Source of the DNA: Verrucomicrobia subdivision 3 bacterium UBA7542
Lineage (GTDB): Bacteria > Verrucomicrobiota > Verrucomicrobiia > Limisphaerales > UBA11358
Assembly: GCA_002479245.1 (NCBI GenBank)
Contig: DLMG01000198.1
Coordinates: 1-6,439 of the forward strand
DNA length: 6,439 bases
Reading direction: 5' to 3'
The position numbers and the translations under genes were made by a program. This document shows positions 145 through 3,061 of the stretch, piece after piece (the stretch's first letter is position 1; each line of letters opens with the position of its first letter). The notes beneath the pieces were generated by a model, which did not search any database, was not told the origin of the DNA, and worked only from the letters and a program-made list of their open reading frames with translations.

Positions 145-162
145 AAAGCAAATGCCTGCGAA

Positions 163-248
163 ATTTACGATTTACGATTGCCGATTGACGCGTATTTCGC
201 GCGGCCATTCATCAATCGTAAATCGCAAATCGTAAATCCCAAATGGAT
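163..248. repeat. Inverted pair of 7-bp tandem arrays abutting prfA
   Basis: The left array (163-190) is four head-to-tail heptamers: ATTTACG twice, then ATTGCCG and ATTGACG. The right array (214-248) has the complementary sense: AATCGTA, AATCGCA, AATCGTA, AATCCCA, and a fifth unit AATGGAT that contains the prfA ATG at 243-245. The reverse complement of 163-189 matches 211-237 at 23 of 27 positions, with 21 bases between. RNA from either strand could therefore fold into a long, imperfect, AU-rich hairpin directly before the prfA start codon. No Shine-Dalgarno sequence is left in this stretch. The 7-bp period is the same as in the other heptad elements of the window, although the unit sequence differs. 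Confidence 0.8.
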
Positions 249-1322
249 CTGCGACCGCACATAGAAAGATTCTCCAGGCGCTTTGCCGAGGTCGAGGCCG
301 CGTTAAGCGACCCAAAAGTTTTCGACAACCCGCAACGCGCGCAGGAATTGTCCAGGGAATACGCCCGGCTCAAGGAGCTGGTCGCGGACGGCGGGAGCTA
401 TTTGAAAACACTCGCCCATTTGGATGAGAACCGCGCGCTGTTGAAAAGCGAGCCGCCTGATTCCGAACTGGCACAACTCGCCAAAGACGAAGCTACACAG
501 CTTGAAATCGAGGGGAAACGTCTCGCGCAGCAAATCCAGTTCGGCATTCTGCCGCCCAACCCGACCGATTCGCGCAACACCATCATCGAAATTCGCGCCG
601 GCGCCGGCGGTTCGGAATCCGCGTTGTTCGCCGCCGATCTTTACCGGATGTATTGTCGTTACGCTGAAGCGCGCGGCTGGAAGGTGGAAACCATGGATTC
701 CAGCCCGTCCGATCTTGGCGGTTTCAAGGAAATCATCTTTTCCATCATTGGCACGGACGTTTTCAAAAGGCTCAAATACGAGAGCGGCGTCCACCGCGTC
801 CAGCGCGTGCCGGCGACCGAGGCGCAGGGCCGCATCCACACAAGCACCTGCACCGTCGCAGTTTTGCCCGAAGCGCAGGAAGTGGACATCGAAATCAAAC
901 CGGAGGAATTGGAAATCAACGTCTGCCGCGCTTCCGGCAAAGGCGGTCAGGGCGTCAACACCACCGACTCGGCCGTGCAGATCATTCACAAGCCCAGTGG
1001 CCTTATCGTTCGTTGTGCCGATGAACGTTCGCAGCAAAAGAACAAGGTGAAAGCGTTAAAAGTCCTGCGCTCGCGCCTGCTGGAACGCAAAATCACCGAG
1101 GAAAACGCTAAATATGCCGCGCAGCGCAAGGACCAGATCGGCACCGGCGAACGCAGCGAAAAAATCCGCACCTACAATTTCCCGCAAAACCGCGTCACCG
1201 ACCACCGCGTGGAATTGACGTTGTATAACCTGGCGAATTTCATTGAAGGCGAACTCGACCCGCTGCTCGAGCCGCTGATGACACATGATTTGGAGGAAAA
1301 ATTGGCGGCGCTGAAAACATGA
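243..1322 (+). CDS. prfA: Peptide chain release factor 1 (RF1)
   Basis: RF1 recognises UAA and UAG stop codons in the ribosomal A site and triggers hydrolysis of peptidyl-tRNA. The 359-residue length is normal for the family. Domain 1 (about 1-105) is helical. The codon-reading PxT tripeptide is PAT at 190-192 within the signature RVPATEAQGRIHTS; RF2 would carry SPF. The catalytic GGQ is at 234-236, and its Gln is the usual target of the PrmC methyltransferase. The late motifs DERSQQKNK and RTYNFPQNRVTDHR are intact. The context around GGQ reads SGKGGQGVN, where E. coli has SGAGGQHVN, so a Lys precedes it and a Gly replaces the usual His. The ATG at 243 fits the family N-terminus, but it lies in a tandem repeat without a ribosome binding site. 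prmC, which often follows prfA, is not the next gene here. Confidence 0.97.
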   Translation: MDLRPHIERFSRRFAEVEAALSDPKVFDNPQRAQELSREYARLKELVADGGSYLKTLAHLDENRALLKSEPPDSELAQLAKDEATQLEIEGKRLAQQIQFGILPPNPTDSRNTIIEIRAGAGGSESALFAADLYRMYCRYAEARGWKVETMDSSPSDLGGFKEIIFSIIGTDVFKRLKYESGVHRVQRVPATEAQGRIHTSTCTVAVLPEAQEVDIEIKPEELEINVCRASGKGGQGVNTTDSAVQIIHKPSGLIVRCADERSQQKNKVKALKVLRSRLLERKITEENAKYAAQRKDQIGTGERSEKIRTYNFPQNRVTDHRVELTLYNLANFIEGELDPLLEPLMTHDLEEKLAALKT

Positions 1323-1325
1323 GAC

Positions 1326-1407
1326 GTGTTGCGTTTTGCGTGTTTCGTCAAGCGGTGGAGTGAATTCAGATCAATACTTGACGCAACACGCAATATGCAC
1401 AATGACA
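1326..1407. repeat. Second inverted pair of 7-bp arrays, between prfA and the HAD gene
   Basis: Three bases after the prfA stop codon a left array begins: GTGTTGC, GTTTTGC, GTGTTTC, GTCAAGC (1326-1353). A right array of opposite sense follows: GACGCAA, CACGCAA, then the decayed units TATGCAC and AATGACA (1380-1407). The core arms 1336-1352 and 1377-1393 are complementary at 16 of 17 positions around a 24-base loop. The structure matches the element before prfA (two arrays facing each other, 7-bp period, right arm ending at the next start codon), but the unit is unrelated in sequence. It may also act as a transcript-end or processing hairpin for prfA, although no T-tract follows it. Confidence 0.7.
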
Positions 1408-1409
1408 AG

Positions 1410-2045
1410 ATGAACAAACCCCGCCCGCAAACTTTCCAGCCGCGCGGACTTATTTTCGATTGCGACGGTACGCTGGCCGACACGATGCCGTTGCACTGGA
1501 GTGCGTGGCACATGGTCACGCAACGGTACGGCCTTCATTTTCCCGAAGACCGTTTTTATTCGCTCGGCGGAGTCCCGGCGCGCGACATTCTCAAGCTGCT
1601 CGCGCAGGAACAGGGCCGGTCGCTCGACCACATCGCCGTCGCGCACGAAAAGGAAGAAACCTACCTGACAACTCTTTCGCAAGTCGAACCCATCCACGCC
1701 GTCGTGGAGATTGCGAAGGCAAATCACGGCAAAATCCCGATGGCCGTTGCGTCCGGCGGCACGGAAAAAATCATCATCCTCGTGCTGGAACGCCTGAACA
1801 TCCGGCATCTGTTCGATGCCATCGTGACGAGTGAGATGGTAAAAAACCAGAAACCCGCGCCGGATATTTTTCTCGAAGCTGCGCGGCTCATCGGTGTGGA
1901 ACCGAAATTTTGCCGCGCCTACGAAGACACCGATTTGGGAATGCAAGCGATTCGTTCAGCCGGAATGGAAGCGGTGGATGTGCGGGAACTGATTGGAACG
2001 TCGGGGTCGTTAAAAAACGACACCAAGACTGGTAATTACGCATAG
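1410..2045 (+). CDS. HAD-superfamily phosphatase, YqaB / beta-phosphoglucomutase-like (subfamily IA)
   Basis: Read from ATG 1410 the protein has 211 residues, typical of this group. Motif I is DCDGT, with nucleophile Asp17 and acid/base Asp19. A helical cap domain spans about 26-95. Motif II is Ser115 in VASGGT. Motif III is Lys148 in QKPAPDIF. Motif IV is Glu172-Asp173 in YEDTDLG, which holds the Mg2+. The C-terminal stretch KPAPDIF through GMEAVDVREL closely resembles E. coli YqaB, a fructose-1-phosphate phosphatase, so a soluble sugar-phosphate phosphatase is the best guess. Mutase activity cannot be excluded. The frame stays open upstream to GTG 1326, and ATG 1395 is also possible. I prefer 1410 because everything before it lies in the heptad array and adds no HAD sequence. 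No clear ribosome binding site is seen. The gene converges with the small membrane protein gene 35 bp beyond its end. Confidence 0.88.
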   Translation: MNKPRPQTFQPRGLIFDCDGTLADTMPLHWSAWHMVTQRYGLHFPEDRFYSLGGVPARDILKLLAQEQGRSLDHIAVAHEKEETYLTTLSQVEPIHAVVEIAKANHGKIPMAVASGGTEKIIILVLERLNIRHLFDAIVTSEMVKNQKPAPDIFLEAARLIGVEPKFCRAYEDTDLGMQAIRSAGMEAVDVRELIGTSGSLKNDTKTGNYA

Positions 2046-2080
2046 CAGCTTGTTGCGCCGTTTTTTGGGTCATTAAGTCA

Positions 2081-2338
2081 TCAAGATTTCGGTAGTTGAT
2101 AAAACCGAGCCTCTTCTTTCTTTCGTTTTCTCCTTCGTTGGATCAGGTAATACGCCGTAAGGCCAAGGAGAATCGCAATTTTGATCGAATCATACACCCA
2201 GTCGCTGACACCCCAAGATTGAGCCAGTTCATATTCCCATTCCCGCCATTGTCTCCCATAGATCAGTCTCAACGCAATGGATACAGGCATCAGAATGATC
2301 GCAGAGATCACCAATATTTCGACCCATGACTTTTTCAT
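2081..2338 (-). CDS. Small two-span membrane protein, function unknown
   Basis: This 85-residue protein has two hydrophobic segments, about residues 7-26 (VEILVISAIILMPVSIALRL) and 53-67 (IKIAILLGLTAYYLI). A Trp-rich loop (RQWREWEYELAQSWG) separates them, and a strongly basic stretch (RRRKRKKEE) follows the second span. By the positive-inside rule this tail is probably cytoplasmic. I do not recognise a family. The ATG overlaps the edge of a heptad element and has no ribosome binding site, so expression may depend on the upstream four-helix-bundle gene, which ends 15 bp before this start. An opposite-strand frame covers most of it, but only this reading gives a sensible membrane topology. It could instead be a degenerate or spurious frame. 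Confidence 0.6.
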   Translation of the reverse strand: MKKSWVEILVISAIILMPVSIALRLIYGRQWREWEYELAQSWGVSDWVYDSIKIAILLGLTAYYLIQRRRKRKKEEARFYQLPKS

Positions 2339-2367
2339 TTCAAATTTGAAATTTCAGATTTTAGATT
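2337..2367 (-). repeat. Heptad element copy A, joining the four-helix-bundle stop and the next start codon
   Basis: Read on the minus strand, this is four 7-bp units of form AATnnnA (AATCTAA, AATCTGA, AATTTCA, AATTTGA) and then AATG. The final ATG (2338-2336) is the start codon of the small membrane protein gene. The TGA at 2356-2354 in the same element is the stop codon of the four-helix-bundle gene. It is nearly identical to the copies at 2575-2604 and 2989-3019, differing mainly in its first unit, which appears decayed. Confidence 0.85.
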
Positions 2368-2893
2368 GCTCCCGTTCCTTGTCTTCCGCCTGCCGGCGCA
2401 GCGGATGATTGGCGGGCAGGTTTCCCAGCAGCCGCTTCTGAAACGCGGCGGCGCGCTGTTTTTGATCGTGTTCATTGCGGACGCGGTCGTTGAGGTGGCG
2501 CTGGCCCTTGATTTCGGAATTTTGGAGCGAGTCGGCCCAGCCACGCAACTGGCGCGAACAGCTTTCAGCGCAGGATTTCAAATTTGAAATTTCAGATTTC
2601 AAATCCGCCGGCCAGCCGGTTTTGTCTGCCCGGCGCAGTTTCAGGGCAAGCATCGAGCGCACTTCTCCCGCCGAGCCGCGCGCGATGTAGATGAACGCGA
2701 GCAATTCGTTGGTCGTGCCGCGTTCGAAGCCTTCGGCGATATTGTTGGACACCGAGAGCGCCGCACGGTCCAACTGGTCACGAAAGCCGGACGTGGCCTT
2801 GAAAGTGTGGTTTTCGAGCAACGCCTCGGTCTGATCATATAGCGTGGCCGCTTCCTGCCACACCGGCAGGTCTTCAAAGCGCTGATAAGTCAT
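2354..2893 (-). CDS. Four-helix-bundle protein (23S rRNA intervening-sequence protein family)
   Basis: Residues 1-85 carry the hallmarks of this family (S23/IVP type): FEDLPVWQEA, FRDQLDRAALSVSNNIAEGF, and RGTTNELLAFIYIARGSAGEVRSML. Members form small pentameric helical bundles. Their cellular role is poorly known, although some are encoded inside 23S rRNA intervening sequences. The usual length is about 120 residues. This one has 179, with a charged C-terminal extension from about residue 125 (EIKGQRHLND, then Arg/Lys/Gln-rich). Residues 97-107 (DLKSEISNLKS) are encoded by an in-frame heptad repeat, and the last codons and the stop lie in another copy. AAAGGGA, 8 bases before ATG 2893, is a fair ribosome binding site. 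The gene lies 168 bp after proC on the same strand, with another heptad copy between. Confidence 0.87.
   Translation of the reverse strand: MTYQRFEDLPVWQEAATLYDQTEALLENHTFKATSGFRDQLDRAALSVSNNIAEGFERGTTNELLAFIYIARGSAGEVRSMLALKLRRADKTGWPADLKSEISNLKSCAESCSRQLRGWADSLQNSEIKGQRHLNDRVRNEHDQKQRAAAFQKRLLGNLPANHPLRRQAEDKEREQSKI
2575..2604 (-). repeat. Heptad element copy B, inside the four-helix-bundle coding sequence
   Basis: This 30-bp element is nearly identical to copies A and C: units AATCTGA, AATTTCA and AATTTGA preceded by ATTTGA. It contains a 9-bp inverted repeat, ATTTGAAAT (2582-2590) and ATTTCAAAT (2596-2604), around five bases. It lies wholly inside an open reading frame and is read as DLKSEISNLKS (residues 97-107) without disrupting the frame. 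Because the DNA period is 7 and a codon is 3 bases, the peptide pattern returns every 7 residues. Confidence 0.9.
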
Positions 2894-2988
2894 AGGATGT
2901 CCCTTTCCATTCCCAGCTTTGTTTCTCTGTTCGTCTTCCCCGGTCCCGAGTCACGATGAAATGCATTTTCCGCTGCCCACATACCGGC

Positions 2989-3019
2989 ATTTCAAATTTG
3001 AGATTTCAGATTTCAAATT
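2989..3019 (-). repeat. Heptad element copy C, between proC and the four-helix-bundle gene
   Basis: On the minus strand the units are AATTTGA, AATCTGA, AATCTCA and AATTTGA, followed by AATG. It is the only copy of the three that stands free of annotated coding sequence, in the 168-bp gap 2894-3061. Its terminal ATG opens a 38-codon frame (2990-2874) that I do not believe encodes a conserved protein. The rest of the gap shows no terminator or clear promoter. Confidence 0.85.
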
Positions 3020-3061
3020 CCTCCCGACGTATTCTCCTTCACTTCCGTCTCACGCTGCCGC

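What the first reader, a model, noticed from the sequence alone, without database searches (positions are those of the whole stretch)
163..3019. A family of 7-bp-period elements of differing sequence placed on gene boundaries
Five elements in under 3 kb (163-248, 1326-1407, 2337-2367, 2575-2604, 2989-3019) are built from four or five head-to-tail heptamers. They fall into at least three unrelated unit types: ATTTACG, GTGTTGC/ACGCAAC, and AATTTGA/AATCTGA. The shared feature is the 7-bp period and the position at gene edges, not the sequence. That is odd for a transposable repeat, which should conserve sequence, and suggests a mechanism that makes or maintains 7-bp periodicity. In form they recall the heptanucleotide STRR repeats of heterocystous cyanobacteria, but the paired inverted arrays look different.
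Basis: partly seen in the sequence, partly recalled or inferred. Interest (0 to 1): 0.8.

Follow-up and report, generated by a model that had tools for sequence, protein, structure and literature searches.

The report
Four-helix-bundle elements with heptamer ends
The 7-bp repeats are the paired ends of small DNA elements, present or absent at matching sites of related bacteria, that carry a gene for a four-helix-bundle protein predicted to recognise them, and the short copies without the gene are likely moved by it in trans.

Summary
Window 2354-2893(-), which the finding does not mention, is a 23S_rRNA_IVP gene (PF05635, S23p, four-helix bundle); three of the five arrays lie at its edges and in frame inside it. 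PF05635 genes generally sit between two short tandem arrays, inverted to each other: of 184 arms that passed a threshold, 159 have 7-bp and 25 8-bp units, about 4.4 units long. Arms match in 68 of 79 loci of relatives and 64 of 77 loci from many phyla, against 1.5% of random sites. The unit differs between families, agrees between the two arms, and is shared mainly among proteins above 60% identity. Orthologous sites are occupied or empty; a 428-bp insertion with a 4-5 bp target duplication is resolved between 98%-identical cyanobacterial plasmids. Five sampled genomes without PF05635 have a tenth of the arrays of four rich ones. The layout parallels RAYT-REP, but the element encodes no transposase, and 34 of 50 host genomes show no reverse transcriptase. 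Protein-bearing 23S rRNA intervening sequences (Coxiella, GACAGAT heptamers) look like one special site of the same element. The catalyst is unknown.

The parts
162..191 (+). left arm of an ORF-less inverted pair, unit ATTTACG
   Evidence: period-7 array; unit matches the resident PF05635 element L007; the pair is also present in G060
209..244 (-). right arm of the same pair, unit CGTAAAT
   Evidence: RNA fold of 160-248: -30.6 kcal/mol, z -4.1
1325..1348 (+). left arm of a weaker ORF-less inverted pair, unit GTGTTGC, directly after the prfA stop codon
   Evidence: TRF 3.4 copies; absent at the same site in G060
1378..1395 (-). right arm of the same pair, unit GCAACAC
   Evidence: read; fold z -3.5; the pair has 4 matches in G000, itself included, and 20 in G020
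2988..3021 (-). upstream arm of the PF05635 element, AAATTTGA-type unit
   Evidence: period-7 array
2354..2893 (-). PF05635 (23S_rRNA_IVP / S23p) gene, 179 aa; domain at 2633-2875
   Evidence: Pfam E 5.5e-21; AlphaFold pLDDT 94.9; best PDB matches 2gsc and 2rld, then, among others, Avd 4dwl
2574..2604 (-). in-frame copy of the same 30-bp array inside the PF05635 gene, coding LKSEISNLKS near the start of helix 96-157
   Evidence: the same internal array is in L109, 72% aa identical, from a genome of the same order
2337..2367 (-). downstream arm of the PF05635 element; overlaps the 3' end of the gene
   Evidence: the HAD-proC junction of G060 holds another ORF and no PF05635 gene

Best explanation
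The arrays are the ends of small elements (about 430-690 bp with the gene, mostly 70-90 bp without it) that occupy or are missing from matching gene junctions of related genomes, and the PF05635 four-helix-bundle protein encoded between the ends likely binds the 7- or 8-bp units and would drive their spread. Shown: two tandem arrays, as a rule inverted, flank the gene; both arms carry the same unit; the unit differs between families and is shared among close relatives of the protein; whole elements and bare pairs are present or absent at orthologous sites; the sampled genomes without the gene have few arrays. Inferred: the protein, a homopentamer in its Xanthomonas relative, docks about one protomer per unit on an array of four to five units, in DNA or in the hairpin RNA of the arms, and brings the ends together; bare pairs are non-autonomous copies mobilised in trans; junctions between genes of an operon are tolerated because the arms bring a stop codon and end at a start codon. 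The enzyme that cuts and joins is not in the element and is unknown; I expect a host activity that nicks or repairs DNA and not a reverse transcriptase.
For: G000 has 11 PF05635 places, 10 over the cut-off, each with arrays beside it, some only at lower scores and one (L011) with its upstream array beyond a GIY-YIG gene. Arm matching, self against other loci: median 16 against 8, score of 12 or more in 68 of 79 against 4.4%; second set 64 of 77 against 4.5% (4 loci of it repeat the first set, leaving 60 of 73); random sites 1.5% of 600, two-sided arrays 0 of 600; plasmids 12 of 12, against 12.9% of cross pairs. Of at most 320 arms of 160 loci 184 pass a score of 11: 159 with period 7, 25 with period 8, none with another from 4 to 12; median 4.4 units for period 7. 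Unit similarity at unrelated sites: 0.4-3.2% of pairs in each bin below 60% protein identity, 35% at 60-70%, 54% at 70-85%, 4 of 4 above. Mobility: of six G000 sites queried in G060 three are empty (L005, L007, L009), one is occupied, one matched on one side and one not at all; the 1325-1395 site is empty there; L001 and L030 share only the element with its arrays; T. variabilis plasmid C against Nostoc linckia and Tolypothrix plasmids: 428-bp insertion, TAAT repeated, and a bare pair of the same unit at the same site in Brasilonema. Arrays: 30 in 573 kb of four PF05635-rich genomes, 3 in 581 kb of five without. 12 of 19 bare arms match a resident element's unit. At one site in five genomes both arms changed unit together while the flanks stay 80-90% identical.
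Against: No catalytic residue or transposase is known for PF05635 (recalled), and binding to the units is untested. Of seven plasmid sites the target duplication is clear at one, 3 bp (ATG) at a second, possible (TTAG) at a third, not clear at four. The GTGTTGC family of 1325-1395 has 20 matches in G020, yet none of the nine PF05635 places of G020 carries that unit, so its partner is missing or different; 7 of 19 bare arms in G000 match no resident unit. ORF-less inverted pairs with periods 6 and 9 exist, and two weak PF05635 places of G020 (L355, L357) score best at period 9, so 7 and 8 may not be the only periods. 11 of 79 and 13 of 77 loci fail the arm test, and both arms reach the strict array threshold in only 36 of 79 and 29 of 77. 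The arm test alone is not specific: 14 of 20 Y1-transposase loci also reach 12, through single REP-like repeats. L001 and the window element have arms that read in the same direction. The link of unit to protein could be common descent alone; in the six other same-site pairs the unit had not changed.
Confidence: 0.7

Rival explanations
1. The elements move through RNA: the protein is an Avd-like chaperone that hands the hairpin transcript to a reverse transcriptase acting in trans.
For: Avd of diversity-generating retroelements is a weak structural match (4dwl, 8ub7) and a reported relative (PMC10053308, passages); the arms of the two bare pairs form strong RNA hairpins; the 23S form is cut out of RNA by RNase III (PMC4990558, passages).
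Against: 34 of 50 PF05635-bearing genomes have no RVT_1 match, among them G001 (14 PF05635 places, 97% complete); counts do not correlate over 59 genomes, rho 0.12, p 0.36. Other genomes are less complete, so single absences are soft.
Confidence: 0.12
2. An IS200/IS605-type (Y1) transposase of the host, such as a RAYT, moves the hairpins in trans and the PF05635 gene is a passenger.
For: PF05635 and Y1_Tnp counts correlate over 59 genomes, rho 0.43, p 0.0007; hairpin ends suit such enzymes.
Against: 4 of 50 PF05635 genomes have no Y1_Tnp match; G043, G057 and G033 have 5-7 Y1 matches and 0-2 heptamer arrays in their samples; 0 of 20 Y1 loci have two-sided 7/8-bp arrays at the threshold, most having REP-like hairpins instead. 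A target duplication, as at the Trichormus site, is not expected of Y1 enzymes (recalled).
Confidence: 0.1
3. The arrays arise by slippage and are kept as terminators or mRNA hairpins at gene ends; the PF05635 gene merely lives nearby.
For: About half of the arrays lie near called gene ends; the two bare pairs of the window fold well.
Against: Empty sites lack gene and both arms together; same unit on both arms; strong preference for periods 7 and 8; tenfold fewer arrays in sampled genomes without the gene; of 8 GIY-YIG control genes 7 lack two-sided arrays (one has a single array upstream) and the eighth lies beside a PF05635 fragment.
Confidence: 0.05
4. The protein is a repressor of its own element, or a host-tamed regulator, and the arrays are only its operators; movement comes from something else.
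For: [quoted passage not shown] no catalytic motif is known (recalled).
Against: A downstream arm of equal strength, and bare pairs away from any PF05635 gene, are not needed for autoregulation.
Confidence: 0.1

Closest known systems
Protein-bearing intervening sequences (IVS) of 23S rRNA, Coxiella and Leptospira type
   Same: Same ORF family, complementary termini with the ORF in the loop, similar size (428 nt); tandem heptamers GACAGAT just upstream of the ORF in Coxiella; a mobile origin proposed (PMC4990558, passages read)
   Different: Those sit in 23S rRNA helices; these lie at gene junctions, have family-specific units and many bare pairs
RAYT-REP / REPIN system
   Same: Gene flanked by inverted repeats, co-evolution, fast-evolving gene, numerous non-autonomous copies (PMC2817692, abstract and passages)
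   Different: No Y1 tyrosine transposase in the element; the repeat is a tandem 7/8-mer array, not one palindrome
Avd of diversity-generating retroelements
   Same: Four-helix-bundle fold (weak match); Avd is a pentamer (recalled)
   Different: 34 of 50 host genomes show no reverse transcriptase; template and variable repeats were not searched for
STRR heptamers of heterocystous cyanobacteria
   Same: Heptanucleotide tandem repeats in related organisms; arrays found at PF05635 genes there
   Different: STRR were described without a gene (recalled); published STRR units were not compared
MITEs
   Same: Short inverted-repeat elements without a gene, present or absent between relatives
   Different: No terminal sequence fixed across the class and no known transposase partner

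Membership tests
PF05635 23S_rRNA_IVP / S23p protein family | profile match above the curated cut-off and four-helix-bundle fold | tested here: met
   75.2 bits against 33.8; model matches 2gsc and 2rld
23S rRNA IVS | located in a 23S rRNA gene | tested here: not met
   No Rfam match in the window; four 23S motifs absent from the 160 PF05635 loci scanned
23S rRNA IVS | complementary termini enclosing the ORF | tested here: met
   68 of 79 and 64 of 77 loci
23S rRNA IVS | RNase III excision | not testable with these tools
   needs RNA mapping
RAYT-REP | Y1_Tnp (PF01797) protein in the element | tested here: not met
   the encoded protein is PF05635; 20 Y1 loci lack two-sided 7/8-bp arrays at the threshold
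RAYT-REP | inverted repeats flank the gene and follow its sequence | tested here: met
DNA transposon / IS | transposase in the element | tested here: not met
   only the PF05635 gene is annotated in the 428-bp Trichormus element
DNA transposon / IS | target-site duplication | tested here: inconclusive
   seven plasmid sites: TAAT clear at one, ATG at one, TTAG possible at one, not clear at four
Diversity-generating retroelement | reverse transcriptase in the genome | tested here: not met
   34 of 50 PF05635 genomes, G000 among them, have no RVT_1 match; genomes partly incomplete
STRR | published STRR unit sequences | not tested
   paper not held

The most novel reading that the evidence does not exclude
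A pan-bacterial class of mobile element without a transposase: a pentameric four-helix-bundle protein reads its element's ends as a row of four to five 7- or 8-bp docking sites, one per subunit, the docking word and the protein drift together so that each family has a private code, and the 23S rRNA intervening sequences and perhaps the cyanobacterial STRR heptamers are its long-known traces.
Probability: 0.45. Interest if true: 0.92.

Novelty: new variant of a known kind. Interest (0 to 1): 0.82.

Why it matters
PF05635 (S23p, 'four helix bundle protein') is found across bacteria and, as far as the passages that I read say, has no known function; its 23S rRNA form has been suspected of being mobile. 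The results give it a genomic context seen in 144 of 168 tested loci (68 of 79, 64 of 77, 12 of 12; 4 loci counted twice), tie scattered heptamer repeats to a gene, and make a long-open question testable: does S23p bind its own heptamers? It also warns that PF05635 genes found inside CRISPR or other operons may be insertions and not parts of the system.

Tried and rejected
GIY-YIG genes as a second cargo: one lies beside a PF05635 fragment (L011/L017); the other 7 are not flanked on both sides, though L023 has an array on one side. Reverse transcriptase or Y1 transposase as the obligatory partner: see rivals. Prediction that G020, rich in GTGTTGC pairs, would hold a PF05635 gene with that unit: failed. 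A uniform target duplication: not found. 23S location: none found with four motifs. A first ORF-based test of gene position was useless because long spurious ORFs cover GC-rich DNA; a hexamer-trained caller replaced it. Literature: ten searches of the open-licence PMC library; in the listings and passages that I saw, heptamers beside a PF05635 gene are described only in the Coxiella IVS paper. Most subscription journals are not held, so this is weak evidence of novelty. Papers were seen as passages or abstracts only, none in full.

Rows dropped and choices made: of 80 PF05635 loci of G000 and relatives (11, then 29 given, then 40 by rank), L046 lacked a downstream flank (79 counted); G052:C16 (contig edge) and G029:C203 (internal TAG) were skipped, and lower-ranked places were not fetched. 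Of 30 prfA loci L141 could not be read. Array density used 5 of the 9 relatives without a PF05635 match and 4 of the 51 genomes with one. In one search bins with more than 250 pairs were sampled, same-site pairs were left out, and four loci are in twice.
Full report
What is in the window. The window holds prfA (243-1322), a HAD hydrolase, a small ORF, a PF05635 gene on the minus strand (2354-2893), proC, a Sel1-repeat protein and further genes. Period-7 arrays lie at 162-191, 209-244, 2337-2367, 2574-2604 and 2988-3021, and no array of any other period from 4 to 12 passes the same threshold. The weaker pair at 1325-1395 follows the prfA stop codon. Three arrays belong to the PF05635 gene: one upstream, one downstream, one in frame inside it.

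The same layout elsewhere in the genome. G000 (4.4 Mb, 70% complete) has 11 PF05635 places, 10 of them over the cut-off. Each has short tandem arrays beside it, some only at lower scores, with a unit particular to that locus: GTCGAGG, GGACTGC, ATTTATG (two loci), ACATCCA, GAACCTT, CAACCCT, GTCAGAA, AAATTTGA, and in two loci 8-bp units, TTGGATTA and GGAGTATT. In L011 a GIY-YIG gene lies between the upstream array and the PF05635 fragment. In most loci the two arms are inverted copies. In L001 and in the window's own element the arms read in the same direction; the window's unit is close to self-complementary, and L030, a relative of L001, has an inverted array further upstream.

Statistics. Upstream 250 bp against the reverse complement of downstream 250 bp, best ungapped match: median 16 within a locus, 8 between loci; 12 or more in 68 of 79 loci against 4.4% of cross pairs. 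A separate scan of GTDB genomes with alignment A2 kept the best 80 of 543 confirmed loci; their titles name Verrucomicrobia, Acidobacteria, Planctomycetes, Proteobacteria, Bacteroidetes, Ignavibacteria, Chloroflexi, Firmicutes genera, Campylobacterales, Elusimicrobia, KSB1 and others. There 64 of 77 reach 12 against 4.5% (300-bp flanks); L172, L173, L176 and L179 have contig lengths and places that repeat four loci of the first set, and all four reach 12. Random sites of G000: 1.5% of 600, and two-sided arrays (16 of 21, period 7 or 8) in 0 of 600, against 36 of 79 and 29 of 77. Of at most 320 arms of 160 loci 184 pass a segment score of 11, 159 with period 7 and 25 with period 8; for period 7 the modal length is 4.0-4.5 units (51 of 159) and the median 4.4. 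Two weak PF05635 places of G020 outside that set (L355, L357) score best at period 9. Among arms that pass, upstream ones are G-rich in gene sense (79 of 96 with G over C), downstream ones the mirror image (G over C in 9 of 105). The arm test alone is not specific to arrays: 14 of 20 Y1-transposase loci reach 12 with 400-bp flanks, through single REP-like repeats, while none of the 20 has two-sided 7/8-bp arrays.

Unit and protein go together. At unrelated sites the upstream arrays of two loci resemble each other in 0.4-3.2% of pairs in each bin below 60% protein identity, 35% at 60-70%, 54% at 70-85% and 4 of 4 above. At one genomic site in five genomes (L049, L050, L099, L052, L093) the arms fall into three unit types, and both arms of a locus always agree (self 14-21, across types 7-11). 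Across types the ORF (68-78% identical to L049) has changed more than the flanks (80-90%); within the L049/L050 type it has not. In six other same-site pairs the unit had not changed, so they say nothing on this point. Replacement by a related element at the same site is an alternative to change in place; L010 and its counterpart L164 in G060 look like that.

Presence and absence. G060 matches the window in four long segments at 81-92% identity, 92% over prfA. It shares the 163-248 pair, lacks the 1325-1395 pair (prfA and HAD overlap there as ATGA) and has another ORF in place of the PF05635 element. Of six other G000 elements queried by their joined flanks, three sites are empty in G060 (L005, L007, L009), L002 is occupied, L008 matched on one side only and L003 not at all; L006 is also shared. 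At the 3' end of prfA in other members of the genus one finds, by eye, empty junctions, ORF-less inverted arrays of several unit types, and full PF05635 genes in G029, G012, G032 and, by coordinates, G003. L001 (G000) and L030 (G031) have an identical protein domain and the arrays beside it, 93% over 487 bp, and the match ends there.

Named complete plasmids. A tblastn of PLSDB plasmids gave 28 records, nearly all cyanobacterial. I fetched 12; all 12 have matching arms (14-31; cross median 8, 12.9% of cross pairs at 12 or more), with two-sided arrays at 16 of 21 in 9. On Trichormus variabilis ATCC 29413 plasmid C the element is a 428-bp insertion relative to plasmids of Nostoc linckia, Tolypothrix and Nostoc carneum (97-98% identical there); TAAT, or GTAAT, stands on both sides of it and once in the empty site. 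Brasilonema has an ORF-less pair of the same unit at that site and Nostoc sp. C052 a decayed copy. Six more occupied sites have relatives (85-97% identical) without the gene; their ends show 3 bp (ATG, L365), a possible TTAG (L361) or no clear duplication (four sites). By my reading of the sequences several insertions lie right between stop and start codons, the arm supplying the stop.

Bare pairs depend on the gene. Period-7 arrays: 30 in 573 kb of four PF05635-rich genomes, 3 in 581 kb of five genomes without a match. Of 19 bare arms in G000 12 match the unit of a resident element at a level reached in at most 10% of 20 random draws of 11 foreign loci; 7 do not. The family of 1325-1395 is among the seven: 4 matches in G000, 20 in G020, none beside the nine PF05635 places of G020.

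Protein. The window protein is modelled with pLDDT 94.9. Its best PDB matches are 2gsc and 2rld, each deposited with five chains; Avd, alone and in the DGR ribonucleoprotein, follows at E above 0.1 among other helical bundles. The Coxiella paper cites the Xanthomonas structure as a homopentamer. The in-frame array codes LKSEISNLKS in the long helix 96-157 and is also present in L109. One protomer per unit is my inference from five chains and a modal array of 4-4.5 units; it is untested.

What it works like. The layout (gene between inverted repeats that follow its sequence, a fast-evolving gene, many bare copies) is that of RAYT-REP (PMC2817692, abstract and passages), with an unrelated protein and a tandem-array repeat. 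Y1 counts correlate with PF05635 counts over 59 genomes (rho 0.43) and reverse transcriptase counts do not (rho 0.12), but 4 of 50 PF05635 genomes have no Y1 match and 34 of 50 no RVT_1 match; many of these genomes are incomplete, so absences are soft.

Relation to 23S intervening sequences. The Coxiella IVS has the same ORF in the loop of a stem of terminal inverted repeats, is 428 nt long, and has tandem heptamers GACAGAT before the ORF, varying in number between strains; the authors mention older proposals of a mobile origin (PMC4990558, passages). None of the 160 loci scanned lies in 23S rRNA as far as four motifs show. I read the rRNA form as one landing site of this element; that step is inferred.

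Limits. Most genomes are metagenome bins; relatives and plasmids are not an even sample of bacteria; the A2 scan favours one part of PF05635; the literature library holds open-licence papers only. The catalyst, the nucleic acid bound and the direction of cause between gene and arrays are not shown.

Noticed in passing
L360 (NZ_CP016476.1) and L369 (NZ_CP112875.1): PF05635 genes with their arrays lie between cas10 and a cmr3-family gene and between cas6 and cas4; a 2023 survey of CRISPR-linked genes (PMC10910872, one legend passage seen) names 23S rRNA IVP, which may reflect such insertions.
   Followed up: partly
L129, L138 after prfA; L058:12263-12300; L064:905-977; L067:4979-5013; L123: ORF-less inverted or palindromic arrays with periods 6 (GTAATC) and 9 (ACACGGATT, TTCGCGnnC) also occur; none is among the 184 PF05635 arms, but L355 and L357 of G020 score best at period 9.
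   Followed up: no
L314, L315, L318, L320, L322: Y1 transposase genes of these Verrucomicrobia have flanking hairpins such as AATAGCCCGCAGTTTCAACTGCGGG, resembling REP sequences.
   Followed up: no
L017 / L011 (G000:C333:28600-29030): A GIY-YIG gene and a PF05635 fragment lie together between a GTCAGAA-type array and a weaker one downstream.
   Followed up: partly
window 2574-2604 and L109: A heptamer array is retained in frame inside the PF05635 gene in two genomes of one order and codes part of a long helix.
   Followed up: partly
L030, L034, L077 downstream of the element: A similar small unidentified ORF follows related elements; in L034 and L077 the element starts just after what looks like a tRNA 3' end (by eye, no tRNA search).
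   Followed up: no
L356 (G020:C77): The array upstream of the PF05635 gene has period 8 and the one downstream period 7 with another unit, perhaps two overlapping elements.
   Followed up: no
PMC6749651: A survey of prokaryote satellites (passages seen) reports 22 satellites derived from the heptamer GATAGRA in Chloroflexus aurantiacus, which could be another family of these elements.
   Followed up: no
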